64,000 nt of DNA from Methylomonas subterranea. GTDB lineage: Bacteria; Pseudomonadota; Gammaproteobacteria; Methylococcales; Methylomonadaceae. Made by a program: the position numbers and the translations under genes. Location of the stretch: assembly GCF_024505185.1 (NCBI RefSeq), contig NZ_JANIBJ010000024.1, positions 1 to 64,000 of the forward strand, in the 5' to 3' direction. Below, piece by piece: positions 8,400 through 62,362 of this stretch (positions are counted from its first letter, which is position 1; the number at the start of each line of letters is the position of its first letter). The notes under the pieces were generated by a model. It ran no database searches, was not told where the DNA came from, and saw nothing but the letters and a program-made list of their open reading frames with translations.

Positions 8400-8464
8400 G
8401 TAGGCCGGATAAGCGAAGCGCATCCGGCAATCATGGTGGATGCGCGCGGCTTATCCACCCTAGC
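8400..8464. repeat. REP-like imperfect palindrome between mshL and mshM
   Basis: The arms GGATAAGCGAAGCGCATCC (8407-8425) and GGATGCGCGCGGCTTATCC (8438-8456) pair at 16 of 19 positions, flanked by TAGGCC and CCTAGCC. This is the layout of a repetitive extragenic palindrome. It sits in the only sizeable gap (8354-8620) of an otherwise overlapping operon, where such hairpins can stabilise upstream mRNA or attenuate downstream expression (inference). Nothing else is evident in the gap. Confidence 0.6.
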
Positions 8465-36597: not shown

Positions 36598-36751
36598 CTC
36601 TGAAAGTAAAAAATCGAGCGGGTACGGTTGCTTGTTGGACAGGCGTCGGCAGCAAGGATGCTGCCGTCGAGCCTACACGGACGTATTTACGGCGTCCTGT
36701 CCGGCGAGGAACCGTGCCCAGCTGCACTACTTTCATTTGCCGGGGCGATGC
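36598..36751. repeat. 154-bp structured interspersed repeat, copy 1
   Basis: 150 of 154 bases match 46935-47088. The inner 135 bp (36601-36735) are bounded by TGAAAGTA and TACTTTCA inverted repeats. Inside, ACGGTTGCTTGTTGGACAGG can pair with CCTGTCCGGCGAGGAACCGT, enclosing a perfect 8-bp hairpin CGGCAGCA-AGGA-TGCTGCCG and a smaller GGACG/CGTCC stem. The layout resembles a MITE or structured RNA. No ORF is plausible inside. Confidence 0.75.
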
Positions 36752-46934: not shown

Positions 46935-47088
46935 CTCTGAAAGTAAAAAATCGGGCGGGTACGGTTGCTTGTTGGACAGGCGTCGGCGGCAAGGATGCTG
47001 CCGTCGAGCCTACACGGACGAATTTACGGCGTCCTGTCCGGCGAGGAACCGTGCTCAGCTGCACTACTTTCATTTGCCGGGGCGATGC
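46935..47088. repeat. 154-bp structured interspersed repeat, copy 2
   Basis: The second copy of the repeat at 36598-36751, with four substitutions. Terminal inverted repeats TGAAAGTA (46938-46945) and TACTTTCA (47065-47072) are kept. Similarity stops just after CGGGGCGATGC, so this copy lacks the CTAGCCTTCATGAACG flank. It lies in the 382-bp gap (46777-47158) between the HD-GYP gene and nasA, where nothing else is evident. Confidence 0.75.
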
Positions 47089-47158: not shown

Positions 47159-49873
47159 TCAGCCGGACTTGGGAGTCGAGCACTGCTCGAGCGCCGCCTT
47201 ACCGGCATCCGCCAGCAACGTTTTCAATTCCGGCAGGCAGGAGCCGCAGCCGGTGCCGGCGCTCAGGCAGGCGCCTATGCCGGCCACGCTGTCGAGCTTA
47301 TGCTCGGCTATGGTTTGCAAAATGGTTTTTTCGCCGACGTTGAAACACGAGCAGACCGTGCGCCCCACATCCTGTTCGCCGCGCGGCGGCAAGCCGCTGA
47401 GCAGGCTCAGGCGTTCCTTGCGGCTCAATTCGGTTTTGCCGAACAGGCCGCACAACCAGCCCGGCTCCGGCAACTCGGCTTGGGCGGTAACGAACAGGCA
47501 GGCGGACAGTTGCCCCGCCTCGACTCGCGCCAGCCGGTAATCGCCGGCGGCGGCATCGCTGTATTCCAGACATTCCGCCATTTCCGCCGAGCCGATATTT
47601 AAGCGCGCGCGGCACCAGCCGGGTAAATCGTCGAGGGCATCCCGGCCGGCCAAATGGTAACGCCAATACCCATCGCCCTTGACCTTGACCTGATATTCCA
47701 CACCCTCGATCCGCGCCGGCTGCCTGGACAGCAGCAAGGCTTGCCAACGCGGCTGCCAGGCTTCGACGCGTACCGGGGTCTGCTTGCTTTCCGGCTGGCC
47801 GGACAATGGATCCACCACCGGATTCACCAAGGCGCCTACCCTGCCCCGGCTGCTGAGTTGTTCGGTCCAATGCATGGGAACGAACACGCTGCCGGGTTGT
47901 TGCGAGACGGTAATGTCCACCCGCGCCAGCATGCTGCCCCAACGCGAAGTCAATCTGGCCAAGCCCTGCTGCCTGAAACCCAGTTGCAAGGCGTCGGCGG
48001 GATGAATCTCCACGGTCGGTTCCGGCTTGTGGCTGTTCAATTTGGCCGCCAGCGCCGTGCGGGTCATGGTATGCCATTGGTCGCGCAGCCGGCCGGTATT
48101 CAAGGTGAACTGATATGCGGCGTCGGCGGCATGAACCGGCCCCCTCGGTACGATGGGAACAAAACTGGCCCTACCGTGGGGAGTATAAAATCCGCCGTCG
48201 CCGAACAGCCGGGCGGTTCCTTGAGTGGCCTTGGCGGTCACCGGCCATTGCACGGGTTGCAGCGCATCGAAGCGGACCTGATCGATATCGGCGAATGCGG
48301 AAATGTCGAACGCTCTGACGCCGTGCATGCTGTCGTTTTCAAACCCGGATAGCGCGGCGTGTTCCCTGAATATATCGGCGCTGGCTTGATAGTCGAAACC
48401 TGCAAAACCCATGCGCCGGGCAACCTGGCTGATAATCCACCAGTCCGGCCGGGCTTGGCCGGAAGGAGGGAACAGCGGCCGTTGCCGGGAGATGCGCCGT
48501 TCCAGATTGGTAACCGTGCCGTCCTTTTCGCTCCAGCCGGTGGCCGGCAACTTCACGTGCGCCAGCGCCATGGTATCGGTATTGGCGATGCAGTCCGACA
48601 CCACCACCAATTCGCATTGTTGCAAGGCGCGCTTGACCTTGTCGGCGTCCGGCATGGATACCACCGGATTGGTGGCCATGATCCATACCGCCTTGACCCG
48701 GCCCTCGGCAACGGCATCGAACAATTCCACGGCTTTCAGGCCCTGGCGGTTGGCGACCTTGTCGCTGCCCCAGAAACGGCCGACCCTGTCGACATGCCGC
48801 GGATTTTCCAAATCCATGTGGGCCGCCAGCATATTGGCCAGCCCGCCCACTTCCCGTCCGCCCATGGCATTGGGTTGGCCGGTCAACGAAAACGGCCCAC
48901 AGCCCGGTTTGCCTATTTTGCCGCTGGCCAAATGGCAGTTGATGATGGCGTTGCATTTATCCGAACCGGAACCGGATTGGTTGATGCCCTGCGAATACAC
49001 CGTCACGACTTTTTTATGATTGGCAAACCAGGCAAACAATTGCGCCACGTCATGAGCTGTCACCCCGCAGCCGGCCGCCACTTCGTCGAGATCGAACGCG
49101 CTGGCTCTGGCCGCAAGCAAGGTAGGTACGAAGTCCTGGCAATGCCGGTCTATGAAATCCCTGTCCAGCGATTCGGTCTCGGCCAGATAGGTCAGCAAAC
49201 CGTTGAACAGCAGGGCGTCCATGCCGGGCCGGATGGACAAATGCAGATCGGCGATATCGCAGGTACTGGTGGCGCGCGGGTCTATCACAACGATCTTCAG
49301 GGCCGGGTTGCTTTCCTTGGCGCGGCGGATGCGTTGAAAGGCGACGGGATGGCACCAAGCCGTATTGGAACCCACCAGCACGATCAGCTCGGCCTGCTCC
49401 AAGTCTTCGTAATTGCAGGGCACCGCGTCGGCGCCGAAGGCGCGTTTGTAGCCCACCACCGCCGACGACATGCAGAGACGGGAATTGGTGTCGATATTGG
49501 CCGAGCCGATAAAGCCCTTCATCAGCTTGTTGGCCACATAGTAATCTTCGGTCAACAACTGGCCCGAGACGTAAAAGGCCACCGCATCCGGTCCGTGTTC
49601 GGCGACGATGGCGGAAAAACGCCGCGCCACATGCGTCAAGGCGCTGTCCCAATCGACGGTTTGGCCGTCGATTTCCGGTTGCAACAGGCGATTTTCCAGA
49701 CTGACGGTATCGCCCAGGGTAGCTCCCTTGGAACACAGGCGGCCGAAATTGGCCGGATGTTGCGCATCGCCCTTGATGTCGACAATATGGTTTTCCGGAT
49801 CGATCAGTGTGGCTTCAATGCCGCAACCGACGCCGCAATAGGGGCAAGTGGTTTTGATACTGGTCGGACTCAT
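47159..49873 (-). CDS. nasA: Assimilatory nitrate reductase catalytic subunit
   Basis: 904 residues. The N-terminal [4Fe-4S] site is CPYCGVGCGIEATL plus Cys in RLCSKGATLGD. Mo-bis-MGD domains follow, with NSRLCMSSAVVGYKRAFGAD and NPVVSMPDADKVKRAL. A C-terminal BFD-like [2Fe-2S] domain (VCSCFNVGEKTI and TGCGSCLPEL) is typical of assimilatory NasA rather than respiratory NapA. There is no Tat signal, so it is cytoplasmic. It reduces nitrate to nitrite with electrons probably from the FAD protein encoded 10 bp upstream. Last gene of the nitrate operon; no nitrite reductase gene is in the window. Confidence 0.93.
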   Translation of the reverse strand: MSPTSIKTTCPYCGVGCGIEATLIDPENHIVDIKGDAQHPANFGRLCSKGATLGDTVSLENRLLQPEIDGQTVDWDSALTHVARRFSAIVAEHGPDAVAFYVSGQLLTEDYYVANKLMKGFIGSANIDTNSRLCMSSAVVGYKRAFGADAVPCNYEDLEQAELIVLVGSNTAWCHPVAFQRIRRAKESNPALKIVVIDPRATSTCDIADLHLSIRPGMDALLFNGLLTYLAETESLDRDFIDRHCQDFVPTLLAARASAFDLDEVAAGCGVTAHDVAQLFAWFANHKKVVTVYSQGINQSGSGSDKCNAIINCHLASGKIGKPGCGPFSLTGQPNAMGGREVGGLANMLAAHMDLENPRHVDRVGRFWGSDKVANRQGLKAVELFDAVAEGRVKAVWIMATNPVVSMPDADKVKRALQQCELVVVSDCIANTDTMALAHVKLPATGWSEKDGTVTNLERRISRQRPLFPPSGQARPDWWIISQVARRMGFAGFDYQASADIFREHAALSGFENDSMHGVRAFDISAFADIDQVRFDALQPVQWPVTAKATQGTARLFGDGGFYTPHGRASFVPIVPRGPVHAADAAYQFTLNTGRLRDQWHTMTRTALAAKLNSHKPEPTVEIHPADALQLGFRQQGLARLTSRWGSMLARVDITVSQQPGSVFVPMHWTEQLSSRGRVGALVNPVVDPLSGQPESKQTPVRVEAWQPRWQALLLSRQPARIEGVEYQVKVKGDGYWRYHLAGRDALDDLPGWCRARLNIGSAEMAECLEYSDAAAGDYRLARVEAGQLSACLFVTAQAELPEPGWLCGLFGKTELSRKERLSLLSGLPPRGEQDVGRTVCSCFNVGEKTILQTIAEHKLDSVAGIGACLSAGTGCGSCLPELKTLLADAGKAALEQCSTPKSG

Positions 49874-49883
49874 GCTTTGATCC

Positions 49884-51104
49884 TCAAGCAGCCAATTCGA
49901 CCGGACTGAAGATTAGTCGATCGCGGATGGCGGCGATGTTGGTGCGGTTTTTAATCAAATTCAAATACCAGCCGCTGTCGCTAGTATCGCCGTACATAAT
50001 CATACCGGTGATGATATTGTCTTTTATGACGATTTTACGGTATACGCCCTCGGCATGATCCACCAGCAACTGTTGCTGGCAATCGGCACCGCCCTCAAAA
50101 TCGCCCACCGAAAACAAATCGATACCGGTCACCTTCAACATGGTGGCCGACAGCAGACTTCTATAACCGCCGGACGCGCGGCCGGCCAGTTGTCGAGCGC
50201 ACACCTTGGCCTGTTCGTAGACCGGCGCCACCAAGCCGAACAGTTCGCCGCGATGCTGCACGCACTCGCCCACCGCGTAGACCCTGTCGTCGCTGGTTTG
50301 CAGATGGTCGTCGACGATGATGCCCCGTTCGCAGGTCAAGCCCATGGCTTGGCTCAAGCCTATATTGGGCTGAATGCCGGTGGCCATCACCAAAATATCG
50401 GCCGGCAGCAAACTGTTGTCGCTGAGCCTGACCTTGCCGATGTGCCCATCCCGTCCCAGGACTTCGGCAACCGTCACCCCCAGCCGAAACTCAATGCCCT
50501 TGTCTTCCAGCTGCCGTTGCAAAAAACCCGCCGCCTGTCCGTCCAACTGCCGGTTCAGCAAATGCCCGGCCCGGTTCACCACCGTCACCTGCATGCCGCG
50601 CTGCATCAAGCCGTTGGCGGCTTCCAGCCCCAGCAAACCGCCACCCAGGATGACCGCGTGCTGCTTGGTTTGGGATTTTTCTATCATGGCTTGCACATCG
50701 GCAATGTCGCGAAACCCCATCACGCCTTCCATGTCACGACCCGGAATGTCCAGCATCAAGGGCAGCGAACCGGTAGCAATCAACAGGCGATCGTAATCCG
50801 CGCTGGTACCATCCCGGGCCGTCACACGCCGCTTGATCCGGTCAACCGACACCACGGACTTTTCCTCGCCGCAATGCAGGGTTATCCGGTTGCGCCGGTA
50901 CCAGGCAAAGTCGTGGATCATGATGTCGTCTATGCTTTTGGCACCGAACAGCAGCGGTGTCAGCATGATGCGATTGTAATTGCCGTGCGGCTCGGCGCCG
51001 AACACGGTAATTTCGTAGCGTTCGGGCGCCAGTTGCATCAATTCGTCTACCGTGCGCATGCCGGCCATGCCGTTGCCGATGACGACGAGTTTTTCTTTCA
51101 TCAT
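49884..51104 (-). CDS. FAD/NAD(P)H oxidoreductase, nitrate reductase electron-transfer subunit type
   Basis: 406 residues. The N-terminal FAD site is LVVIGNGMAGMRTVDEL, the second dinucleotide site is AVILGGGLLGLEAANGL near residue 150, and LPADILVMATGIQPN and VYAVGECVQHRG follow. The sequence matches the FAD-domain half of NirB and the NasB/NasC-type partner of assimilatory nitrate reductase. There is no siroheme or Rieske domain, so it cannot itself be a complete nitrite reductase. Its position directly before nasA indicates that it passes NAD(P)H electrons to NasA. Confidence 0.85.
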   Translation of the reverse strand: MMKEKLVVIGNGMAGMRTVDELMQLAPERYEITVFGAEPHGNYNRIMLTPLLFGAKSIDDIMIHDFAWYRRNRITLHCGEEKSVVSVDRIKRRVTARDGTSADYDRLLIATGSLPLMLDIPGRDMEGVMGFRDIADVQAMIEKSQTKQHAVILGGGLLGLEAANGLMQRGMQVTVVNRAGHLLNRQLDGQAAGFLQRQLEDKGIEFRLGVTVAEVLGRDGHIGKVRLSDNSLLPADILVMATGIQPNIGLSQAMGLTCERGIIVDDHLQTSDDRVYAVGECVQHRGELFGLVAPVYEQAKVCARQLAGRASGGYRSLLSATMLKVTGIDLFSVGDFEGGADCQQQLLVDHAEGVYRKIVIKDNIITGMIMYGDTSDSGWYLNLIKNRTNIAAIRDRLIFSPVELAA

Positions 51105-51231: not shown

Positions 51232-51672
51232 TTACCATTTTTTGTAAGGCAGAAATTTACCGGACATGCTGATGTGTACCCGATCCCCCTTGGGGTCGGA
51301 TTGTTTTTCCACATCCATCGAAAAATCGATCGCGCTCATGATGCCGTCGCCGAATTTCTCCTGAATGATGGCTTTCAGCGGCATGCCATACACCTGCAGG
51401 ATTTCGTAGAAACGGTAAATCAAGGGATCGGTCGGCACCATGGGCCCCAGCCCCTTGAGCGGATAGTCCTGTAGGGCACCGACCGCGCCGGCGTCTAAAT
51501 CCAGCGCCCGCCCCAGAATTTCGGCCTCCTCCGCCGAAGCACTGGCCTGGCCGTAAAACAAGGCGGCTATCCATACTTCGTCCCGCCCCAACTGGGTTTC
51601 AAGATCCGCAAAACGCAGACCTTTTTGTTTTTTGGCGGCGAACAGTGTCTCCGTCAGCTGCTGTTGCGTCAT
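51232..51672 (-). CDS. cynS: Cyanate hydratase (cyanase)
   Basis: 146 residues, the normal size. It catalyses cyanate plus bicarbonate to ammonia and CO2. The catalytic Arg and Glu are in [12 protein letters not shown] and the catalytic Ser is in [13 protein letters not shown], matching R96, E99 and S122 of E. coli CynS. The C-terminus [11 protein letters not shown] is also typical. The N-terminal half is the HTH-like oligomerisation domain. Inside a nitrate operon it widens nitrogen supply to cyanate, which related ABC transporters also carry. The 127-bp gap downstream holds nothing clear. Confidence 0.95.
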
Positions 51673-51738: not shown

Positions 51739-53016
51739 TTAAAAATTGACGTTGGCCTGCAGCCAGATTCTTTGGGTGTCGGTGTACGCCGCGTTATCTG
51801 TGTTGAAATTGGCGTATTTGGCCAACAGGGAGTAATGCTTGCCGAATTTTTTCAGCACCGAGAAATCCCATTCCTTACCGTACTGAATCGAACCGGTGTC
51901 ATCCTTGAAATCGTGATAAACGCCGGTGATGATCAGACTGTCGTTCATCATTTTGTAGCTGGCGGTAGCAAACACGTCGCGGATACCGTCCTTGGGCGTG
52001 ACCAGGAACAAATCCGCCCAGCCCTGGAAGGCGTGGTTGGTGCCCAGCGGAGTCTGGAAGGCTTTGGTGGTTTTACCCGCGCCGCTTCCCAAACCGTTCA
52101 ATTGTTCCACGGCGGCCGACAAGGTCAGGTTGTAAGCACTGGCGCCGGCCATCAAATTGATCCGGTCAACCTGATAACTGTTGGGGTTGTCGCCGTAATC
52201 GGCCTGGGTACTCCATTCGGCGGTATACACGGCATTGACCCGGTCGAAAAACTGCGGCGATTTGCCGTCGAAACGCAGGCCGTAGGTTTGCGAGGATTTG
52301 CCGAAGTTTTCCGGCTCGCGGTAGTCCAGCCAATAACCGTAACCGATCAGATTGCCCCAGTCGCCGACCTTGTAATTCAGGTTCAGAATCGGCGAGTTCA
52401 TCGACTCCTTGGTACTGAAAATGGTCCGGGCGCTATCGATATAACCGGCGTTGACGGTCAAGCCGAAGATAGTTTGGTTTTTATGGGTGAACAGAACGGA
52501 ATCGTAGGTCATCTCCATTTGCCGCCAGCCGACGTTACCGATGAAACGGTCATCGTCGAATTTGATGCGTTGACGGCCGACCGTGACCACGGTGTCCGGT
52601 ATGCCTTTATAAGCCAGCCAGAACTGGTTCAATTCGCTCATGTCCGGATCGGCGATGACGGAATATCCGGTGCGGCCGTTGCGAGTACTGTTGTAATCCT
52701 CCTGCAAGGCGTAATTGCCCTCGTATTCGGCAAAGGCTTGAAAGTTGTAAAAAGTCGGCGACAGTAAACCCAGACGCAGGCGCGCGGTATTGGCGTTGGC
52801 GGTTTTGGGATTGCCCGCGCCCCTGTCCTGGTCGGCATTTTCCCAGCGATAGTTCAAATCCATTTTGACCGCGCCGTTGTTGCCGTAGTGGTAAAAATTC
52901 AAGGCATCTTCCACCTCCTTGGTGAAATCGGCCTGTACCGGCATGCCCGCCAAGGACATGGATAGCAAGGCGCCGGGCGCCAGGCTCGCGGAGAGTCGGG
53001 TGGTTTGCTTCGGCAT
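51739..53016 (-). CDS. Alginate-export-type outer-membrane porin
   Basis: 425 residues from ATG 53016, preceded by AAAGGGGG; an ATG at 53058 is open but has no RBS. A signal peptide (APGALLSMSLAGMPVQA) precedes a 16-to-18-strand-type barrel ending in WLQANVNF (terminal Phe). Family features include MDLNYRWENADQDRG, TARLRLGLLSP, WLAYKGIPDTVVTVGRQRI and FIGNVGWRQMEMTYDS. Such porins are often encoded with nitrate or cyanate transporters and probably let the anion cross the outer membrane. It sits between nrtCD and cynS. Confidence 0.8.
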   Translation of the reverse strand: MPKQTTRLSASLAPGALLSMSLAGMPVQADFTKEVEDALNFYHYGNNGAVKMDLNYRWENADQDRGAGNPKTANANTARLRLGLLSPTFYNFQAFAEYEGNYALQEDYNSTRNGRTGYSVIADPDMSELNQFWLAYKGIPDTVVTVGRQRIKFDDDRFIGNVGWRQMEMTYDSVLFTHKNQTIFGLTVNAGYIDSARTIFSTKESMNSPILNLNYKVGDWGNLIGYGYWLDYREPENFGKSSQTYGLRFDGKSPQFFDRVNAVYTAEWSTQADYGDNPNSYQVDRINLMAGASAYNLTLSAAVEQLNGLGSGAGKTTKAFQTPLGTNHAFQGWADLFLVTPKDGIRDVFATASYKMMNDSLIITGVYHDFKDDTGSIQYGKEWDFSVLKKFGKHYSLLAKYANFNTDNAAYTDTQRIWLQANVNF

Positions 53017-53076
53017 AAAGCCCCCTTTACTGGATGAAAAAAAACGGTTGCTTGACATGGCTGGACTCTAATCGGG

Positions 53077-54843
53077 TTAATGGGTGTGGTCACATTCGGA
53101 CAGGAAGGTCAATAGACTTTCCCGGTATTTGTAGTAATCGGGGTGTTCCAACAGCGCCTTGCGGCTGCGCGGCCTGGGCAGGTCGATTTCCTGAATTTTG
53201 CCTATCTTGGCGTGCGGGCCGTTGGTCATCATCACCACCCGATCCGCCAGCAAAATGGCCTCGTCGACATCGTGAGTCACCACAATCGCCGTCACGTGGG
53301 TGCGTTCCCAGACTTCCATCAGCACTTCCTGCAGCTCCCAACGGGTCAGGGAATCAAGCATGCCGAAAGGTTCGTCCAGCAATAATAATTTGGGCGACAA
53401 GGCAAAGGCGCGAGCGATGCCCACCCGCTGGCGCATGCCGTTGGACAGGTCGGCGGCTTTTTTGTACAGCGAGTCGGCCAGACCTACCCGGGTCAGATAA
53501 TATTCGACGATGTCCTCGCGTTCGCTCTTGGAGGCGTGCGGATAGACCTTGTCCACCCCCAACATGACGTTGTCGAAGGCGCTCAGCCACGGAAACAAAC
53601 TAGGGGCCTGAAACACCACGCCCCGGTCCGGACCGGCGCTATCGATTTCGCGGTTGTCCAGAATGATGCCGCCCTCGGAAATATCGTTGAGACCGGCTGT
53701 CATCGACAATACGGTGGATTTACCGCAACCGGAATGGCCTATGATGGAAATGAACTCGCCTTTTTTCATTTTCATGTCGAAGCCGTCCACCACCTTGACC
53801 GTGCTGTTGCCGTCCGGCGTGGGATAGATTTTCGACAATTGGCTGAATTCCAGATAGCGCGGCCGGCCCAGATCCGACTGGCTGGGTTTCAAGGCCGAGC
53901 TATCCAGCTTCCAGTCGTTGCTGGTGTTGGGGCGTACATCGGGCAGTTTGATTTTGTCGCCCTCCTCGGCCTCGGCTTTTTGCATGCCGATATTCATCAA
54001 ATAGCGGGTGATTTCGGCCCGCAGACGCTTGAATTCCTCGTTATGGTTCAGCGCGGTGCGGTCGCGCGGCCGTTCCAGGTTGACATGAAAATCCGGACCG
54101 AAAGTGGCATCCGGCCCCGGATTGAGCGGAATTACCCGGTCGGCCATGTAGATGGCTTCGTCGACGTCGTTGGTGATCAGGATTACGGTTTTCTTGTCTT
54201 GCTCCCAGATTTGCAGAATTTCGTCCTGCAGATTGCCGCGGGTCAAGGCATCCAGGGCGCTGAGCGGTTCGTCCAGCAACAGAATATCCGGATTGGCGGC
54301 CAGCGCGCGGGCCACGTTGACCCGTTGCCGCATGCCGCCGGACAATTCGGCCGGCTTTTTATCCATGGCCCGGCCCAGATTGACCATATTGACGTATTTT
54401 TGGGCGTGGGCGCGGCGTTGTTCAGGCGTCCAGTCCTTGAAAATCGCATCCACCGCCAGCGCCACGTTTTCATAAACGGTCAGCCAAGGCATCAGGGAAT
54501 AGTTTTGAAACACCACCCCGCGATCGGGGCCCGGTTCGCTGATGGGCTGGCCGTTTTTCAACAATTCGCCGCTGTCGGCCTGAATCAAACCGGCAATCAA
54601 GGAAACCAGCGTGGTCTTGCCGCTGCCGGAAAAACCGACGATGGCAATGAATTCGCCTTCCCGGATATTCAGGTTGATGTCCTTCAGAATCGAGGCCCTG
54701 TCCCTGCCCTCGCCGTAGGATTTGCAAACCTTGTGCAAACTCAGCAGGGCGGGTTGTTTGATATCGGCCAGTTTAAGCACGGCGCTTTCCTGTTTATGCA
54801 CGGCGAGATCGATGATTTTTGCTGCGGCTACAGTCATGGTCAT
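53077..54843 (-). CDS. Nitrate/cyanate ABC transporter, two fused ATPase domains (NrtC/NrtD-type)
   Basis: 588 residues with two complete ABC modules. Domain 1 (about 35-270): Walker A GFSGSGKTTLV, signature LSGGMRQRVNVARAL, Walker B ILLLDEPLSALD. Domain 2 (about 330-580): Walker A GHSGCGKSTVL, variant signature LSNGMRQRVGIARAF, Walker B LLLLDEPFGMLD. Both carry PGPDRGVVFQ-type Q-loops as in the nitrate/sulfonate/taurine class. The H-loops differ: LITNDVDEA in domain 1 (His replaced by Asn) and VVTHDVDEA in domain 2. The two ATP sites may therefore be unequal. One polypeptide appears to replace separate NrtC and NrtD. Three bp separate it from nrtB. Confidence 0.9.
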   Translation of the reverse strand: MTMTVAAAKIIDLAVHKQESAVLKLADIKQPALLSLHKVCKSYGEGRDRASILKDINLNIREGEFIAIVGFSGSGKTTLVSLIAGLIQADSGELLKNGQPISEPGPDRGVVFQNYSLMPWLTVYENVALAVDAIFKDWTPEQRRAHAQKYVNMVNLGRAMDKKPAELSGGMRQRVNVARALAANPDILLLDEPLSALDALTRGNLQDEILQIWEQDKKTVILITNDVDEAIYMADRVIPLNPGPDATFGPDFHVNLERPRDRTALNHNEEFKRLRAEITRYLMNIGMQKAEAEEGDKIKLPDVRPNTSNDWKLDSSALKPSQSDLGRPRYLEFSQLSKIYPTPDGNSTVKVVDGFDMKMKKGEFISIIGHSGCGKSTVLSMTAGLNDISEGGIILDNREIDSAGPDRGVVFQAPSLFPWLSAFDNVMLGVDKVYPHASKSEREDIVEYYLTRVGLADSLYKKAADLSNGMRQRVGIARAFALSPKLLLLDEPFGMLDSLTRWELQEVLMEVWERTHVTAIVVTHDVDEAILLADRVVMMTNGPHAKIGKIQEIDLPRPRSRKALLEHPDYYKYRESLLTFLSECDHTH

Positions 54844-54846
54844 GCC

Positions 54847-55860
54847 TCAAATTTTGCTGAAGGAAAACACGGTTTGCAGCGATTGCATGATGCGATCGAG
54901 GATGAAACCGATGATGCCTATGGTAAACACCGCCACCATGATGCGGCCCAGCGAATTGGAGCTGCCGTTTTGGAATTCGTCCCAGACGAACTTGCCTAGG
55001 CCGGGGTTTTGCGCCAGCATTTCGGCGGCGATCAACACCATCCAGCCCACCCCCAGCGACAAACGCATGCCGGTAAAAATGTAAGGCAGCGCGGACGGTA
55101 GAATGATACGTTTGATTTGGGTCGGCCAATCCAGCCGCAACACTTTGCCGACGTTGGCCAAGTCCCGGTCTATGGATGAAACGCCCACCGCGGTGTTGAT
55201 CAGGGTCGGCCACAACGAACACAGCGTCACGGTGACGGCCGATGTAATGAAGGATTTGGCGAACCAGGAGTCATCGGTGGTGACATACACGGCACTGACC
55301 ACCAGTGTCACAATCGGCAGCCAGGCCAGCGGCGATACCGGCTTGAAAATCTGAATCAACGGGTTAATCGCAGTATTGATTATAGAACTCATACCGCACA
55401 AAATTCCCAAAGGTACGGCGATAAGGCTGGCAATTAGAAAGCCGGCAAACACCGTATATAAGCTGGTGATAATTTGATCCAGATAGGTGGATTTACCGGT
55501 ATAGGGGCGCAACTTGATCTCGGCGGCGGGGTCTTCGGCAAGTTTCTCCCGGTTGCGCGCCTCCTGGCGTTTATAGAACTCGGCCATTTTGACTTTTTCA
55601 GCAAAGTGTTCGTCAATCAAGCCTTCCGCTTCGCCCCATACCGCCACGGGGCCGGGGATAGTGCCCAGGCTGGTGTTGATACGGGAGGCGGTCATGCTCC
55701 AAAGCCCCAAAAACAGCACAAAGGCTACGATGGGGACACCCATGATCAGCCACAGTTGGCGCAGTTGCTGGCCGGGATTTTCCCCGGCCGCGATTTTGAC
55801 CAAGGGCACAAACCAGGTCAGACCTGTGATATTGAAAAATTTGATTAATTTATTGGGCAT
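54847..55860 (-). CDS. nrtB: Nitrate/cyanate ABC transporter permease
   Basis: 337 residues from ATG 55860, with AGGTGA 6 nt upstream; a GTG at 55869 is also open. A first helix near residue 35 (VPIVAFVLFLGLWSM) is followed by a charged loop (about 70-130) longer than in most homologues. The BPD_transp_1 domain then has five helices and the EAA-type loop near ILPSALPYIFTGMRLSLGVG. It forms the membrane channel for NrtA-bound anion. Next to the double ATPase gene and 144 bp after nrtA. Confidence 0.92.
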   Translation of the reverse strand: MPNKLIKFFNITGLTWFVPLVKIAAGENPGQQLRQLWLIMGVPIVAFVLFLGLWSMTASRINTSLGTIPGPVAVWGEAEGLIDEHFAEKVKMAEFYKRQEARNREKLAEDPAAEIKLRPYTGKSTYLDQIITSLYTVFAGFLIASLIAVPLGILCGMSSIINTAINPLIQIFKPVSPLAWLPIVTLVVSAVYVTTDDSWFAKSFITSAVTVTLCSLWPTLINTAVGVSSIDRDLANVGKVLRLDWPTQIKRIILPSALPYIFTGMRLSLGVGWMVLIAAEMLAQNPGLGKFVWDEFQNGSSNSLGRIMVAVFTIGIIGFILDRIMQSLQTVFSFSKI

Positions 55861-56004
55861 TGTCTTCACCTAGTTTTTCATCGGTCAGCGTTTCGATAGC
55901 CACTGTGTCGGGTTGCGGCTGACGCCTAACCCAACCAACATTTTTTAAAAAAGATGCGTCCCTGCATCAAGTGCCTTCCCTGTCGGAGCACTTACCAGAG
56001 ACTG

Positions 56005-57405
56005 TTAATCGACCACTTTGCCACCGGCTACGGTTTGCTTGGCTTTTAAGCCGATGGCAAATTTGCTTAGGTAATCGTTCGGCTTACTGGCGTCGTAAAC
56101 GATGCCGTCGATAAAACCGGATTGCGGCGGTTTGATGCCGGATTCGCTATCAGCCGGAAAATCGCCGGCTTTGGCCTTGCCTTCGGCAACCAATTCCTTG
56201 GCGGCGGCCATGTAGATGTCGGGACGGTAGACTTTTTTGGCGGTTTCAAGATACCAGTTGTCCGGTTTGAATTCGTTGATTTGCCCCCAGCGGCGCATTT
56301 GAGTCAGATACCAAATGGCGTCGCTGTAATACGGGTAAGTGGCGTTGTTACGGAAGAAGGTGTTGAAATCCGGCATGGGGCGTTTGTCGCCTTTTTCGTA
56401 CTCGAAGGTGCCGGTCATGCTATTGGCCAAAACCTCGGCATCGGCGCCGACATACTGGGTTTGCGCCAGCATTTCCACGGCTTCCCTGCGGTTTTTATTG
56501 TTTTCCGCATCCAGCCACATCGCCGCCCGAATCAAGGCTTTTACGACGGCCTTGTGGGTGTTTGGATACTTATCCGACCAAGCTTGCGTTACGCCGAATA
56601 CTTTTTCAGGGTTGTCTTTCCAAATTTCATAGTCGGTCACCACCGGCACGCCTATGCCTTTGAATACTGCTTGCTGGTTCCACGGCTCGCCGACGCAATA
56701 GCCGTAGATAGTGCCGGCTTCCAGGGTGGCCGGCATTTGCGGCGGCGGCGTCACCGACAACAAGGCATCCGCGTTGATTTGACCGGTGGTTTCCTGCGGC
56801 GGCGCGTAGTAGCCGGGTTTAATCCCGCCGGCGGCCAGCCAGTAACGCAATTCGTAGTTATGTGTCGATACCGGGAACACCATGCCCATATTGAACGGCT
56901 TGCCGGCGGCCTTAAATTGGTCGACCACGGGCTTAAGCGAATCGGCCTTGATCGGATGCGCCGGCTTGCCGCCTTCCATCGGCACATGCGGCTTCATTTG
57001 ATTCCAAATCTCGTTGGAAACAGTGATGGCGTTACCGTTCAAGTCCATGCTGAAAGCCGTGATAACGTCGGCCTTGGTGCCGAAGCCGATTGCCGCGCCT
57101 AACGGTTGCCCGGCCAACATATGCGCGCCGTCCAGTTCGCCGTTGATCACTCTGTCCAGCAATACCTTCCAATTGGCTTGCGCTTCCAATTGCACAAACA
57201 AACCTTCCTCTTCGAAAAAGCCTTTTTCCGCCGCCACCGCCAACGGCGCCATGTCGGTCAATTTGATGAATCCGAACTTCAAATCCTCTTTTTCCAGCTT
57301 GCCGGCCGCCTGCCCGCCCGGAGCAAAGCCAAGGCCAGTGACAAGCAAACCGGCCGACAGGGCCAGCAGTAATTTCTTGGAAGTATGGCGAGTAATGTTT
57401 TTCAT
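56005..57405 (-). CDS. nrtA: Nitrate/cyanate ABC transporter substrate-binding protein
   Basis: 466 residues from ATG 57405. The signal peptide is [24 protein letters not shown]. The mature NrtA/SsuA-like protein has [20 protein letters not shown] at its start, then [21 protein letters not shown] and [17 protein letters not shown], characteristic of nitrate/bicarbonate binders. The signal peptide separates it from the soluble sensor NasS. First gene of the operon; its leader holds a sigma-54 promoter, ANTAR-type hairpins and a terminator. The 144 bp after it show no clear terminator. Confidence 0.92.
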
Positions 57406-57431: not shown

Positions 57432-57485
57432 TAAAAAAAAGGCGTCGCCGTAATACGGGTAAAACCCATACACGACAGACGCCTT
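57432..57485 (-). terminator. Leader terminator of the nitrate operon
   Basis: On the minus strand GGCGTC (57483-57478) pairs with GACGCC (57446-57441), followed by TTTTTTTT. An inner GGGT-TTT-ACCC hairpin extends the structure. It lies between the promoter and the nrtA start, so transcription would stop unless antiterminated. Confidence 0.8.
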
Positions 57486-57495
57486 TGTCCGGTTT

Positions 57496-57535
57496 GCTCT
57501 ACTGTGAGCTTATGATGCGGCTCCTACATTGGAGC
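57496..57535 (-). promoter_or_regulatory. ANTAR-type two-hairpin antitermination element (NasT/NasR target)
   Basis: On the minus strand hairpin P1 is GCTCC-AATGTA-GGAGC (57535-57520) and hairpin P2 is GCTC-ACAGTA-GAGC (57509-57496). Both have six-base loops with A at position 1 and G at position 4, the hallmark of RNA bound by ANTAR-domain antiterminators such as NasR, NasT and EutV. A 10-nt spacer separates them and the terminator follows 12 nt after P2. This predicts that nitrate or nitrite, through NasT with NasS, allows read-through into nrtA. No nasS or nasT gene is in this window. Confidence 0.8.
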
Positions 57536-57549
57536 ATTGTTTACAACAA

Positions 57550-57566
57550 TGCAATAGCGATGCCAA
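57550..57566 (-). promoter_or_regulatory. Sigma-54 promoter of the nitrate operon
   Basis: The minus-strand sequence TTGGCATCGCTATTGCA matches YTGGCACGRNNNTTGCW, with the invariant GG and GC ten bases apart. The predicted start, about 12 bp downstream near 57538-57540, falls just before the first ANTAR hairpin, so the leader RNA would begin with that hairpin. Confidence 0.75.
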
Positions 57567-57713: not shown

Positions 57714-57730
57714 TGCACATCCGTGGTGCG
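57714..57730. promoter_or_regulatory. Candidate NtrC-binding site
   Basis: TGCACATCCGTGGTGCG agrees with the NtrC consensus TGCACY-N5-RGTGCA at 10 of 12 defined positions and lies about 150 bp upstream of the sigma-54 promoter, a normal enhancer distance. A half-site TGCACC begins at 57645. The rest of the gap between nrtA and the autotransporter gene (57567-57822) is AT-rich near the promoter and shows no gene. Confidence 0.55.
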
Positions 57731-59206: not shown

Positions 59207-61840
59207 CTACTCTGTCAGGAAAGGGTTGTGCAGGTTGTCATTGAGATTGATTTTCAGCTGTTGGCCTCCGGGTACACCACCCGTTACAAATGGAAGCACG
59301 GCGGCGTCGTTGCCGCCACCGGCGCATGCGGGCGGAACGGCCGTGAAACTGTTCGCGGTAGCGTGTTCCAGAGCAGCGTTATCCCTCATGAATAAATGCC
59401 CCAGTTCATGCGCCAACACCACGCCCCTGGGTTTAGGGCAATCCGTATCTTCGGCCAGCAGGATTCCGCTTTCGGATAGCAAATTGGCAACATTGAAATC
59501 TCCCCTATAATCTTCCGGGGATACGGTTAAAGCCGCCGGTCTGCCCTGATTCAATAATTCTCCGACGTAATACAAGTTGACGTCTTTTGCGTCCGCGCTG
59601 CGATTAGTGGGGTTATTTAAAATATTTTTTATCTCACTGGTGCGATAAGGTAGATTATTCAGCAAAATAGATTTTGCATCGATATCCTGCTTGTTTACGT
59701 TAGCCACCAAATTATCGATCAATCGGACACCTCGAAGCTGAATATTCAAGCCGGCCTGAGACAAAATTTCATTGGCACCGTACCGGCGCAAATTATTTTC
59801 GCCAAAGCTGTGCAATTCTTTTAAAAATCTGTCGGTTACCGCCGCCAGTTGCGCATTGTCGTCCCCCGCAAATACGCCCCTGACGGCCTTGACGTCCACA
59901 AAAGCCGTATTGAAGCGAATATTATCCAACAGTACTTTTGTATTGTAATTATTGTCCCCCTTGTCAACCGCGGTAAAAGCCAAATCGAGGGTAACGGTTT
60001 TACCGGCAAACTCGCTCATATCGAAAGCGGCGGTCGCCCATTTCCGGATAGTGCCGGCTCGGTCACCCACCACGAAGGGTATTTTTCCGCAGGTGGCATC
60101 CCCGCCTGGAAATCCGCAATTGAACATGGCGACTTCCGGCAAGCAATTGGCTGATTGCCCATAAATATTCGTACAAGGCTGCAAGCCTTCAACCCCCGGA
60201 TTGTCGACACCAACCGTCTTGATGAATTTTTGTACTCCATCGCTGGTAGTCACCGTGGCGTTGAAGGTATCGTCAAATTGCGTACCGGCAAATTCGTTGA
60301 ATTCCTCGCTGAGGAAGATATAGTCGACGTAAAGAGTCTTGGAGCCCGCCGGCACAGTGAATCGTTGCGTCAGTACGGAACCGAGATCGCCGACATTCGT
60401 GACACCGGTGGTGATCCGTGCCATCCATTTGCCTTCGCTCGGCAAAATATTACCTTCGCTTGGCGAATTGGGAGCCGGACAGGGCAGGCCGGGGTCGAAA
60501 TCGCCGGCAGCGGGAACACTGCAAAGCGGCACGCTTTGAACAATCGCAACGTCGCCTTTTGTTTCCCAAAAACCTTCGCAAAATGTGTTTTGCACCGCTC
60601 CGGTTACAGGGTCATTAACCTCTTTTACACACTCGAATCCGCCGTTACGGATACCCGCCAAAGCCGACTTGAACTTGGAAAACGCATAGGTTTTCGACAG
60701 CACGATATCCGTTTGTTGGACTTGGTTCGGCAGCGAGTATGCCGCCTCCCCGGAAAAACCGCGCATCGAATCGAAAGCCGTCAATGTGTATGGACCGGTA
60801 CCGCTGATATAGAGTTGGAAAATGCCTTGAGAATTGCTGACGGCCACCAAACTGTTTGTATTGCTGGCGACCACGACGCTGGGCACTTTTACCGCGGTTG
60901 CGGGGCAGGGTGTCAGTTGCTGCGTCCCCTCGCAAACGCTCCCGGAAATATTATCCGAGCCAAAGTCAGCCAACAACGCATAGAGCCCGCTACCGAAAAC
61001 CCCATCATAAAACGAGCCGTCGGTAACAATCCGGTTACTTTTAAAATCCACGACAGCGGTATCCACCGGCATCAGCCGCTTGAAAAAACCGCCCTCATCC
61101 TCGCCCATGCCGGGCAAGGGAACTTCAATTTCCTTGGCCAGTATGAAATTTTCAGTTTGCGGATTTGCCGGTACGGGAAAGGATAGCGACAACGGCTTTT
61201 GTAGCGGGGTGACCTCTATTTCAGCCTGAACCGGCTCAAGCAAAAGCTTCACGGTATCCATCAGCGGAATCGTGTCGCCAATCGGCGCTTCGATGTCCCC
61301 GGAAGCGGACGACACAATTGTCAAGCGCGCTTCGTAGGGTATTGCATCGGGCGGCACCGTAACCACAATGCCATCGTCCCCGGTTACGCTGCCGCCTTGA
61401 TTGGGTTTGAATGTGCTGCCCGCCAATTTAGTAAAAACATCGGACAGCAACTTGACGCCACGATTTTCAGCCTTGATGCGAAATTTAATTTCGCCGGATG
61501 TTTTTTGCTGAATGGTCGCCATTCCGGCATAAATGCCATCACCGGCAATTTTGTCCCGCCCCTTGCCGTTATCGTGTAAGACGGCAACCGTGGTTTCACT
61601 GGACTTGCCGTTCGGAAGCGTTCGGATCTTTTGTAGCAGTAAAACGTTGGGCTTGTGTTTCGGCAAACCGCCGGCCAACTCCGCTGTAACGCTGACCAAA
61701 TTGGGTTTCGGCCCAATTTGGATAAAATCCGGATTAAAGCTTGTTTCCTTTATTACCAATACTCCCTCGGGTTTCTTGGCTTGCACGTATCCGACCTGGG
61801 TCAAAAGAAACGCCAAAAATATTAGTTTTGCGAATAACAT
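59207..61840 (-). CDS. Large secreted protein with HELGH zinc-protease-like motif
   Basis: 877 residues from ATG 61840, preceded by GGGGAAG. Signal peptide LIFLAFLLTQVGYVQA. The N-terminal half contains beta-rich, Ig-like or ZU5-like segments (GDDGIVVTVPPDAIPYEARLTI) and a carboxypeptidase-regulatory-like stretch. A central region (about 455-660) with VDYIFLSEEFNEFAGTQFDD resembles choice-of-anchor L domains. Near the C-terminus, VVLAHELGHLFMRDNAALEH carries HExxH. The metzincin third His is not at its standard place (HELGHLFMRDN), so the clan is unclear. No PEP-CTERM or LPXTG sorting tail is visible. It may be a cell-surface or released metallopeptidase. Confidence 0.75.
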   Translation of the reverse strand: MLFAKLIFLAFLLTQVGYVQAKKPEGVLVIKETSFNPDFIQIGPKPNLVSVTAELAGGLPKHKPNVLLLQKIRTLPNGKSSETTVAVLHDNGKGRDKIAGDGIYAGMATIQQKTSGEIKFRIKAENRGVKLLSDVFTKLAGSTFKPNQGGSVTGDDGIVVTVPPDAIPYEARLTIVSSASGDIEAPIGDTIPLMDTVKLLLEPVQAEIEVTPLQKPLSLSFPVPANPQTENFILAKEIEVPLPGMGEDEGGFFKRLMPVDTAVVDFKSNRIVTDGSFYDGVFGSGLYALLADFGSDNISGSVCEGTQQLTPCPATAVKVPSVVVASNTNSLVAVSNSQGIFQLYISGTGPYTLTAFDSMRGFSGEAAYSLPNQVQQTDIVLSKTYAFSKFKSALAGIRNGGFECVKEVNDPVTGAVQNTFCEGFWETKGDVAIVQSVPLCSVPAAGDFDPGLPCPAPNSPSEGNILPSEGKWMARITTGVTNVGDLGSVLTQRFTVPAGSKTLYVDYIFLSEEFNEFAGTQFDDTFNATVTTSDGVQKFIKTVGVDNPGVEGLQPCTNIYGQSANCLPEVAMFNCGFPGGDATCGKIPFVVGDRAGTIRKWATAAFDMSEFAGKTVTLDLAFTAVDKGDNNYNTKVLLDNIRFNTAFVDVKAVRGVFAGDDNAQLAAVTDRFLKELHSFGENNLRRYGANEILSQAGLNIQLRGVRLIDNLVANVNKQDIDAKSILLNNLPYRTSEIKNILNNPTNRSADAKDVNLYYVGELLNQGRPAALTVSPEDYRGDFNVANLLSESGILLAEDTDCPKPRGVVLAHELGHLFMRDNAALEHATANSFTAVPPACAGGGNDAAVLPFVTGGVPGGQQLKINLNDNLHNPFLTE

Positions 61841-61978
61841 AATCTTCCCCTTATTTAACTGTACGCGATTACGTTCATTTTTAGCCGGCGTCCGCATCAA
61901 TTATTGGTAAAACCGCGGATTGAGATTTCCTCCGCCCGACATTGAGGACATACCGTAAAACCACCTGGCAAAATCGCC

Positions 61979-62037
61979 AAAAAAAAGCCGGATTACCTGT
62001 CATGACGTTATCGATGTCATGTCGGCAATCCGGCTTT
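61979..62037 (-). terminator. Intrinsic terminator, minus strand
   Basis: AAAGCCGGATT (61984-61994) pairs with AATCCGGCTTT (62027-62037), with an inner CATGAC/GTCATG stem. On the minus strand it is followed by a T run (complement of the A run at 61979-61986). It would end the RND transcript about 325 bp after its stop. The region 61901-62362 holds no other feature I can support. Confidence 0.75.
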
Positions 62038-62362
62038 CCAGAATCTCTTTTATTCGGGATCCGCGATTTTCCGCGCCTACCTTCCGATAGGCTTGGCTAG
62101 TTGGTTAAATAAGCTTATAGCGCAAAATTGAGCGGGTTTCTACTGAGCGATTTTGTCAACATTTCAAGGCTAAGCAAACTCGAACGGAGGGCAAAATGAT
62201 GCCCTCAAGCTAACGCGATTTCGGCAGTCGACAATTTCCCCCGGATAACTTCCGAAAACGGTTTTTCCATCAAACCGTTCGCGCGCGCCGCCAGAAAACA
62301 GCCTTTCCGGGCAAACAAATACGGGTTAATTGCAAATCATCTCTCCAACCCTAAATATGCCT

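What the first reader, a model, noticed from the sequence alone, without database searches (positions are those of the whole stretch)
57432..57566. Sigma-54 promoter feeding directly into an ANTAR two-hairpin attenuator before nrtA
Within 135 bp the minus strand shows a GG-N10-GC sigma-54 promoter, a predicted start at the foot of the first hairpin, two hexaloop hairpins (loops AATGTA and ACAGTA, each A1/G4) and an intrinsic terminator, followed by nrtA. ANTAR antitermination of nas operons is known in Klebsiella and in Azotobacter/Pseudomonas. Here the whole chain is readable from sequence and implies an AND gate of nitrogen limitation and nitrate. Two details are odd. The 5' end would start almost at P1, and the minimal P2 stem does not overlap the terminator arm (12 nt apart), unlike models where P2 and terminator exclude each other. 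The GGAGC arm of P1 could also pair with GCTC of P2, an alternative fold.
Basis: partly seen in the sequence, partly recalled or inferred. Interest (0 to 1): 0.85.

Follow-up and report, generated by a model that had tools for sequence, protein, structure and literature searches.

The report
Three-hairpin nitrate-operon leader lacking NasS
A methane-eating bacterium appears to control its nitrate-use genes with a known kind of RNA on/off switch, but the switch has a third hairpin that overlaps the stop signal, and the protein that usually tells such a switch about nitrate was not found in the genome.

Summary
In detail: on the minus strand a sigma-54 promoter (57566-57550), two A1/G4 hexaloop hairpins and a terminator precede nrtA, and relatives share them. 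The interpretation needs two corrections.

A third hexaloop hairpin, GGAC-AAAGGC-GTCT (57491-57476), straddles the terminator's 5' arm, which is how Ramesh et al. define P2. The "odd" 12-nt gap is thereby explained. H3 is intact in 51 of 57 nrtA upstreams of the family. Its fourth pair covaries (54/63, shuffles 31.5). It recurs at nirB in this genome, and Rfam P11 has the same layout.

(2) The nitrate input is unexplained. A NasT-like ANTAR protein lies about 11 kb away, but no NasS was found. NasS was found in 1 of 55 family genomes with NasT. Instead nasT abuts narK (23 genomes, this one included), or the genome carries a triple-GAF protein (30); one genome has none.

Verdict: NasT-type antitermination behind an NtrC/sigma-54 promoter, known in kind; the three-hairpin array and missing or exchanged sensor make it a new variant. 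Sequence evidence only.

The parts
57714..57730 (-). NtrC-like site CGCACCACGGATGTGCA, about 165 bp upstream of the sigma-54 element
   Evidence: 10 of 12 letters of the consensus TGCACC-N5-GGTGCA (consensus recalled). In 52 family leaders the best upstream site scores at least 9 of 12 in 44, against 7% of block-shuffled regions
57550..57566 (-). sigma-54 promoter TTGGCATCGCTATTGCA; predicted start 57539
   Evidence: a TGG[CT]N8TGC element lies 50-130 nt before H3 in 51 of 53 family leaders
57520..57535 (-).
   Evidence: A or G at loop position 1 with G4 in 44 of 53 family leaders by script, 47 counting three where one search shows accc-AAAGCA-gggt
57496..57509 (-).
   Evidence: hexaloop hairpin in 48 of 53 family leaders; G4 in 48 of 48, A1 in 44 and G1 in 4
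57476..57491 (-). H3: third hexaloop hairpin CGGAC-AAAGGC-GTCTG, the probable antiterminator (canonical P2); loop bases G4-C6 and its 3' arm lie in the terminator 5' arm
   Evidence: box in 53 and intact in 51 of 57 family nrtA upstreams; fourth pair 54 of 63 standard against 31.5 in shuffles; recurs at nirB
57433..57483 (-). intrinsic terminator: stem 57483-57441, T8 57440-57433
   Evidence: stem alone -26.5 kcal/mol
56005..57405 (-). nrtA, first gene of the operon (nitrate-type ABC binding protein)
   Evidence: Pfam NMT1_2, 331 bits
47159..55869 (-). rest of the operon: nrtB 54847-55869, nrtCD 53077-54843, Alginate_exp porin 51739-53058, cynS 51232-51672, nasB-like 49884-51104, nasA 47159-49873
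   Evidence: Pfam domains; gene names for nrt/nas are inferred from domains and order

Best explanation
This is a NasT-type (ANTAR) transcription attenuator of the nrt/nas operon. Under nitrogen limitation NtrC and sigma-54 start a transcript at about 57539. The leader folds in order H1, H2, H3. H3 uses the first bases of the terminator stem, so it can form only before the terminator is complete. If active NasT grips H3 together with an upstream hexaloop (H2 is at the right distance, H1 is a further site), the base of the terminator cannot close and RNA polymerase reads into nrtA; otherwise the far stabler terminator displaces H3. Shown by sequence: the elements, their conservation, the covariation, and the co-occurrence of leader and ANTAR gene. 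Inferred: start site, NtrC control, NasT binding, read-through. Unknown: what switches NasT, since the usual sensor NasS was not found; NasT is genetically tied to a NarK-type transporter here.
For: H3 is conserved in a set chosen by the nrtA protein, not by the leader: box in 53 and intact in 51 of 57 family upstreams. The H3 loop is AAAGGC 49, AATGGC 2, AACGGC 1, GAAGGC 1: positions 1 and 4 hold while 3 varies. Its fourth pair, whose 5' side lies outside the terminator, is standard in 54 of 63 against 31.5 in shuffles (0 of 2000 reach it), and the fifth pair shows nothing (18 against 17.3), which marks the stem end. In 80 named gammaproteobacterial nrtA loci the script found a terminator in 58; the best hexaloop of at least 3 bp on its 5' arm has A1/G4 in 42 of 54 (about 1 in 16 by chance) and stems alternate GAC/GTC, GGC/GCC and AGC/GCT. 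H2-to-H3 loop spacing is 17-20 nt in 48 of 48. The growing transcript passes through an H1+H2+H3 fold at 64-70 nt before the terminator takes over by 100 nt. Leader and ANTAR gene go together: in the family 53 of 54 nrtA genomes with an ANTAR gene have the box and 0 of 3 without it do (Fisher P 1.4e-4, not corrected for kinship). A second leader with sigma-54, H3 and terminator stands before nirB.
Against: No expression or binding data. The nearest relative (L048, NrtA 92% identical) has a 4-nt H1 loop and G instead of A at H2 position 1. H1 or H2 lacks the signature in 10 of 53 leaders. The fourth H3 pair is standard in only 29 of 48 in the named set. The nirB leader here has no A1/G4 hexaloop upstream of H3 that the scan could find. 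GACAANGRCGTC alone is not specific: 10 copies in the genome against 14 of the reversed control pattern; seven fetched copies are not leaders. H3 is much weaker than the terminator (-18.8 against -41.1 kcal/mol for the whole fold), so it needs protein.
Confidence: 0.85

Rival explanations
1. Two-hairpin reading of the first reader: NasT binds H1 and H2, and the terminator is blocked without a terminator-overlapping hairpin (for example by steric hindrance or by cross-pairing of H1 and H2 arms).
For: H1 and H2 both carry the loop signature in most relatives; cross-pairing of at least 4 contiguous pairs is possible in 34 of 48.
Against: It leaves the conserved GGACAAAGGCGTC box and the covariation of its fourth pair unexplained. 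H2-H3 spacing is tighter (17-20 nt) than H1-H2 spacing (15-31 nt). Some relatives lack the H2 hexaloop (4 of 53) or the H1 signature (5 of 53) but the H3 box is there. The cross-paired fold is at least 5 kcal/mol less stable.
Confidence: 0.08
2. Unregulated antiterminator: NasT is always active here because NasS is gone, and only nitrogen limitation (sigma-54/NtrC at narK-nasT and at the targets) controls the operon; the leader is then a NasT-dosage or nitrogen-only gate, not a nitrate gate.
For: No NasS found in the genome (PF13379 gives only NrtA and a 31.5-bit partial match; a NasS query finds only NrtA). A strict sigma-54 element stands upstream of narK-nasT too. The phospho-acceptor Asp is Asn in all 9 narK-linked NasT proteins aligned.
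Against: The receiver domain stays conserved among narK-linked NasT proteins (mean 68% identity, minimum 55%, ANTAR 81%) and narK sits directly upstream in 23 of 23, which suggests a kept input partner.
Confidence: 0.35
3. A free small RNA like Rfam P11 rather than a leader: the terminated 107-nt transcript acts in trans.
For: The stretch aligns end to end with P11 (30.7 bits, E 0.007 for the window), which Rfam lists as a gene-type RNA; the gathering score of 70 is not reached.
Against: P11-model matches with a clear gene behind them stand before nrtA, nirB or related nas genes, and the elements match the ANTAR leader model. A terminated leader could still act in trans as a by-product.
Confidence: 0.04

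Closest known systems
ANTAR dual-hairpin antiterminators (EutV/eut, NasR/nasF, AmiR/amiE; Ramesh et al. 2012, PMC3369931, passages and section 7 read)
   Same: A1/G4 hexaloop hairpins; the last one forms at the 5' base of the terminator and excludes it; upstream partner hairpin at a short linker (window H2-H3 5 nt between 4-bp stems; the paper gives 5-12 nt for eut).
   Different: Three hexaloop hairpins in a row instead of two.
NasS-NasT control of nas operons (Paracoccus PMC3795266 and PMC5424462, passages read; Azotobacter and Pseudomonas known to me from titles in reference lists and recall)
   Same: NasT-like protein (pseudo-receiver plus ANTAR) and a leader before nitrate-assimilation genes; joint control by NtrBC and NasST is stated for Azotobacter in PMC5424462.
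   Different: No NasS found in this genome; nasT follows narK directly.
Rfam P11 (RF00625)
   Same: Sigma-54 element, two hexaloop hairpins, the ACAAAGGCGUC box and terminator in the same order; the 126-bit P11 member L033 shows three A1/G4 hexaloops before a NirB/NasB-like gene.
   Different: The window scores 30.7 bits against a gathering score of 70, so it is a diverged relative, not a called member.
Rfam narK RNA (RF03032)
   Same: The consensus also shows GGCAC...UUGC followed by GACAAAGACGUC.
   Different: Match of 16.6 bits, E 0.84: not significant; likeness noted from the consensus only.

Membership tests
ANTAR-responsive leader (dual-hairpin motif) | A hexaloop hairpin with A1 and G4 that overlaps the terminator (P2) | tested here: met
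   H3 at 57491-57476; conserved and covarying
ANTAR-responsive leader (dual-hairpin motif) | An upstream A1/G4 hexaloop hairpin (P1) at a short, constrained linker | tested here: met
   H2, 17-20 nt loop to loop from H3 in 48 of 48 family leaders with H2
ANTAR-responsive leader (dual-hairpin motif) | An ANTAR protein in the genome | tested here: met
   One match, 69.4 bits, G000:C24:68295-68453; Response_reg plus ANTAR
ANTAR-responsive leader (dual-hairpin motif) | The protein binds the RNA and raises read-through | not testable with these tools
   bench only
NasS-NasT nitrate regulon | NasT: pseudo-receiver plus ANTAR | tested here: met
   ANTAR part aligned with relatives
NasS-NasT nitrate regulon | NasS, an NrtA-like nitrate sensor without signal peptide, usually beside nasT | tested here: not met
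   Not found in a 99.9% complete assembly of 104 contigs
Sigma-54/NtrC promoter | GG-N10-GC with upstream enhancer site | tested here: met
   dependence itself not testable here
Rfam P11 | Score at or above the gathering threshold of 70 bits | tested here: not met
   30.7 bits

The most novel reading that the evidence does not exclude
A conserved antitermination machine has changed its sensor. In this methanotroph family NasS was lost while NasT, its RNA array and its targets were kept; NasT is now driven by a different partner: a NarK-type nitrate transporter directly upstream of nasT in Methylomonas and allied genera (a transporter acting as sensor), and a triple-GAF protein, with weak likeness to the GAF part of plant NLP nitrate regulators, in sister genera. 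The three-hexaloop array may let two NasT dimers, or one recruited and one clamping dimer, act in sequence on a single leader.
Probability: 0.3. Interest if true: 0.78.

Novelty: new variant of a known kind. Interest (0 to 1): 0.5.

Why it matters
It removes an apparent exception to the ANTAR model: a leader that seemed to lack a terminator-overlapping hairpin has one. It gives a natural three-site target for asking why ANTAR switches need two hexaloops and whether a first hairpin recruits protein for the second, a question left open in PMC8934654 (passages read). It shows a case where the RNA half of a nitrate switch persists while its known sensor is absent, with two candidate replacement partners that can be tested directly. 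It also suggests that Rfam P11 is best read as a NasT leader.

Tried and rejected
Searching the genome for the H3 box alone was uninformative: 10 copies against 14 of the reversed control; the seven fetched copies outside the leaders (three GACAATGGCGTC and four GACAAAGGCGTC) have no leader context; one further copy, GACAAGGGCGTC, was not fetched.

Rfam P11 as a search model loses weak members: one search reported only the nirB leader for this genome and missed the window's own. It also contains the H3 box, so I did not rest H3 conservation on it and used nrtA-anchored sets instead.

A test whether loss of H1 and loss of H2 exclude each other gave too few cases (5 without the H1 signature, 4 without the H2 hexaloop, 1 with neither by script, of 53) to say anything.

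The automatic choice of H1 picked another hairpin in L067, L068 and L082; one search shows the signature hairpin there, and I state both counts. The regular expression for H3 missed L106, where a variant atgagc-AAAGAG-gctcat overlaps the terminator.

Sequence comparison with solved structures gave only weak GAF-type matches (best E 3.3e-4). The narK product gave no close solved relative.

Literature: searches listed no paper that I recognised as describing three ANTAR hexaloops in one leader, NasT without NasS in methanotrophs, or a GAF partner of NasT. That is a statement about this open-licence library and those terms only. Romeo et al. 2012 and Wang et al. 2012 were seen only as titles in reference lists; Wang 2012 is not held, Romeo 2012 was not looked up.

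Full report
What is there. On the minus strand, reading 5' to 3': an NtrC-like site (57730-57714), a sigma-54 element TTGGCATCGCTATTGCA (57566-57550), a predicted start at 57539, hairpins H1 (57535-57520) and H2 (57509-57496), a third hairpin H3 (57491-57476), a terminator (57483-57441) with eight T (57440-57433), and nrtA from 57405. Behind nrtA follow nrtB, nrtCD, an Alginate_exp porin, cynS, a NasB-like FAD protein and NasA (Pfam domains).

Chance. The strict sigma-54 pattern is found once in the window with 0.28 expected, which is weak alone, but three times in the 19.9-kb locus around nrtA, narK-nasT and nirB with 0.07 expected (0 of 200 shuffles reach three). Three non-overlapping A1/G4 hexaloop hairpins of at least four pairs in 107 nt were reached by 0 of 20,000 shuffles and, sampling every 10 nt on both strands, nowhere else in the 64 kb.

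The third hairpin. GGAC-AAAGGC-GTCT has loop A1 and G4, and its G4-C6 and 3' arm are the first bases of the terminator stem. Ramesh et al. 2012 (PMC3369931, section 7 read) define P2 as the hexaloop hairpin at the 5' base of the terminator; Stewart and van Tilbeurgh (PMC3369936, first of two parts read) say the same for nasF.

Conservation, chosen without looking at the leader. I took the upstream regions of nrtA found by protein search in 151 genomes of the order (fetched): 70 regions, of which 57 are from the window's family f1. One family genome (G024) was left out because its nrtA is split between contigs. The more distant NrtA-like hits (about 50% identity or less) were also left out. In the family the H3 box is present in 53 of 57 and intact in 51 (L061 has loop position 1 = G, L098 a broken closing pair). 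H2 is a hexaloop hairpin in 48 of 53 with G4 in 48 of 48 and A1 in 44 (G in 4). H1 has A or G at position 1 with G4 in 44 of 53 by script, 47 when three wrongly chosen hairpins are replaced by those. Distances: sigma-54 GC to H1 loop 21-23 nt in 45 of 51; H2 to H3 loops 17-20 nt in 48 of 48; H1 to H2 loops 15-31 nt. So a start right at H1 is the rule in this family, not an oddity.

Covariation. Over 63 distinct leaders of the order the fourth H3 pair is standard in 54, against 31.5 in shuffles (0 of 2000 reach it). The fifth is at chance (18 against 17.3). The three inner pairs hardly vary and say nothing. In 25 further P11-found leaders the fourth pair is standard in 25 of 25 against 18.8 (this set is biased towards the box). 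Relatedness is not corrected for; the flat fifth pair is the internal control. In 80 named gammaproteobacterial nrtA loci my script found a terminator in 58; the best hexaloop of any sequence with at least 3 pairs on the terminator's 5' arm has A1/G4 in 42 of 54, and the stems alternate GAC/GTC, GGC/GCC and AGC/GCT (pairing of three was required there, so the change of pair types and the loop letters are the evidence, not the pairing). Against: the fourth pair is standard in only 29 of 48 of that set.

Folding. As the transcript grows, the predicted best fold is H1+H2+H3 at 64-70 nt; rearrangements appear at 76 and 82; H3 stands again beside the top of the terminator at 88-94; and the full terminator wins by 100 nt. 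Whole-fold energies are -18.8 kcal/mol with H3 and -41.1 with the terminator. H3 therefore needs protein to persist, as in the ANTAR model.

Second leader and P11. Upstream of nirB in the same genome stands another sigma-54 element, the same H3 box and a terminator, but the scan finds no A1/G4 hexaloop before its H3; by eye, several other Methylomonas nirB leaders have a 7-nt loop there. Rfam P11 aligns end to end with the window leader at 30.7 bits, below its gathering score of 70; its best member here (L033, 126 bits) has three A1/G4 hexaloops. P11-model matches: 32 of 151 order genomes at E 0.05 and 12 of 369 class genomes at E 0.001.

Protein side. The genome has one ANTAR match, a Response_reg plus ANTAR protein at L002:12272-12850, that is contig 24 positions 68271-68849, about 11 kb from the leader and beyond the window end; it starts two bases after the narK stop. 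Leader and ANTAR gene go together: of 57 family nrtA genomes, 53 of 54 with an ANTAR gene have the box and 0 of 3 without one do (G123, G140, G146). The exception (L056, with its congener L098 partly) shows decay of box and T-run together. Outside the family, L105 (G010, not among the ANTAR matches) also has no box.

The missing sensor. PF13379 finds NrtA and one partial 31.5-bit match. A NasS query from G051 finds only NrtA here. Among 55 family genomes with a NasT-like ANTAR match of at least 60 bits (two weaker ones, G098 and G142, set aside), NasS was seen in one (G051). narK lies directly upstream of nasT in 23, with 401-411 nt from narK match end to ANTAR domain in each. A triple-GAF protein of about 308 aa is in 30 and not in this genome: 22 directly downstream of nasT on the same strand, 2 next to it on the opposite strand, 6 elsewhere. 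One genome (G135) shows none of the three. narK and GAF sets do not overlap. GAF_NLP (plant NLP GAF) is over its curated cut-off in 2 of the 9 GAF proteins scanned. At the phospho-acceptor column narK-linked NasT has N in 9 of 9 and GAF-linked has no D in 11. Eight others give D in 7; the one without D (L118, G007) is from a genome where the NasS query found only its NrtA copy. The ANTAR part is more alike across the narK and GAF types (72%) than the receiver (36%). This fits an exchanged input partner, but an always-active NasT is a serious rival.

Identity. The window is therefore from Methylomonas or a close genus; this is inferred.

How it compares. Mechanism: as in known ANTAR leaders. 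Membership in the ANTAR-leader kind: met where testable. Membership in the complete NasS-NasT system: not met, because NasS was not found. Nitrogen AND nitrate logic itself is not new: PMC5424462 (passages read) states joint NtrBC and NasST control in Azotobacter, and Ntr plus NasR control in Klebsiella. New here: three hexaloops in a row as a family rule, and NasT without NasS beside narK or, in relatives, with a triple-GAF protein.

Noticed in passing
L002:14931-15060 (+), contig 24 of the genome, beyond the window: nirB leader with sigma-54, H3 box and terminator but no A1/G4 hexaloop found upstream; other Methylomonas nirB leaders show a 7-nt loop there.
   Followed up: partly
L158:4686-5630, L161:3551-4474 and other loci: A triple-GAF protein of about 308 aa beside nasT in sister genera, with weak plant-NLP-type GAF matches.
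   Followed up: partly
51232-51672 and 51739-53058 (-): Cyanase (cynS) and an Alginate_exp-type porin lie inside the nitrate assimilation operon.
   Followed up: no
62020-62106 (-): c-di-GMP-I-GGC riboswitch-like match, 45.3 bits (gathering 59), upstream of the ORF at 59207-61900.
   Followed up: no
46978-47080 and 36641-36743 (-): Two similar copies of an intergenic element matching Rfam Ysr224 at 33 bits (gathering 70).
   Followed up: no
8403-8460 (both strands): Palindromic naRNA4-like element, 34.8 and 33 bits (gathering 59.5).
   Followed up: no
Rfam RF03032 (narK RNA) consensus, seen: Its consensus carries GGCAC...UUGC and GACAAAGACGUC, so it may be another NasT leader; the window match is not significant.
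   Followed up: no
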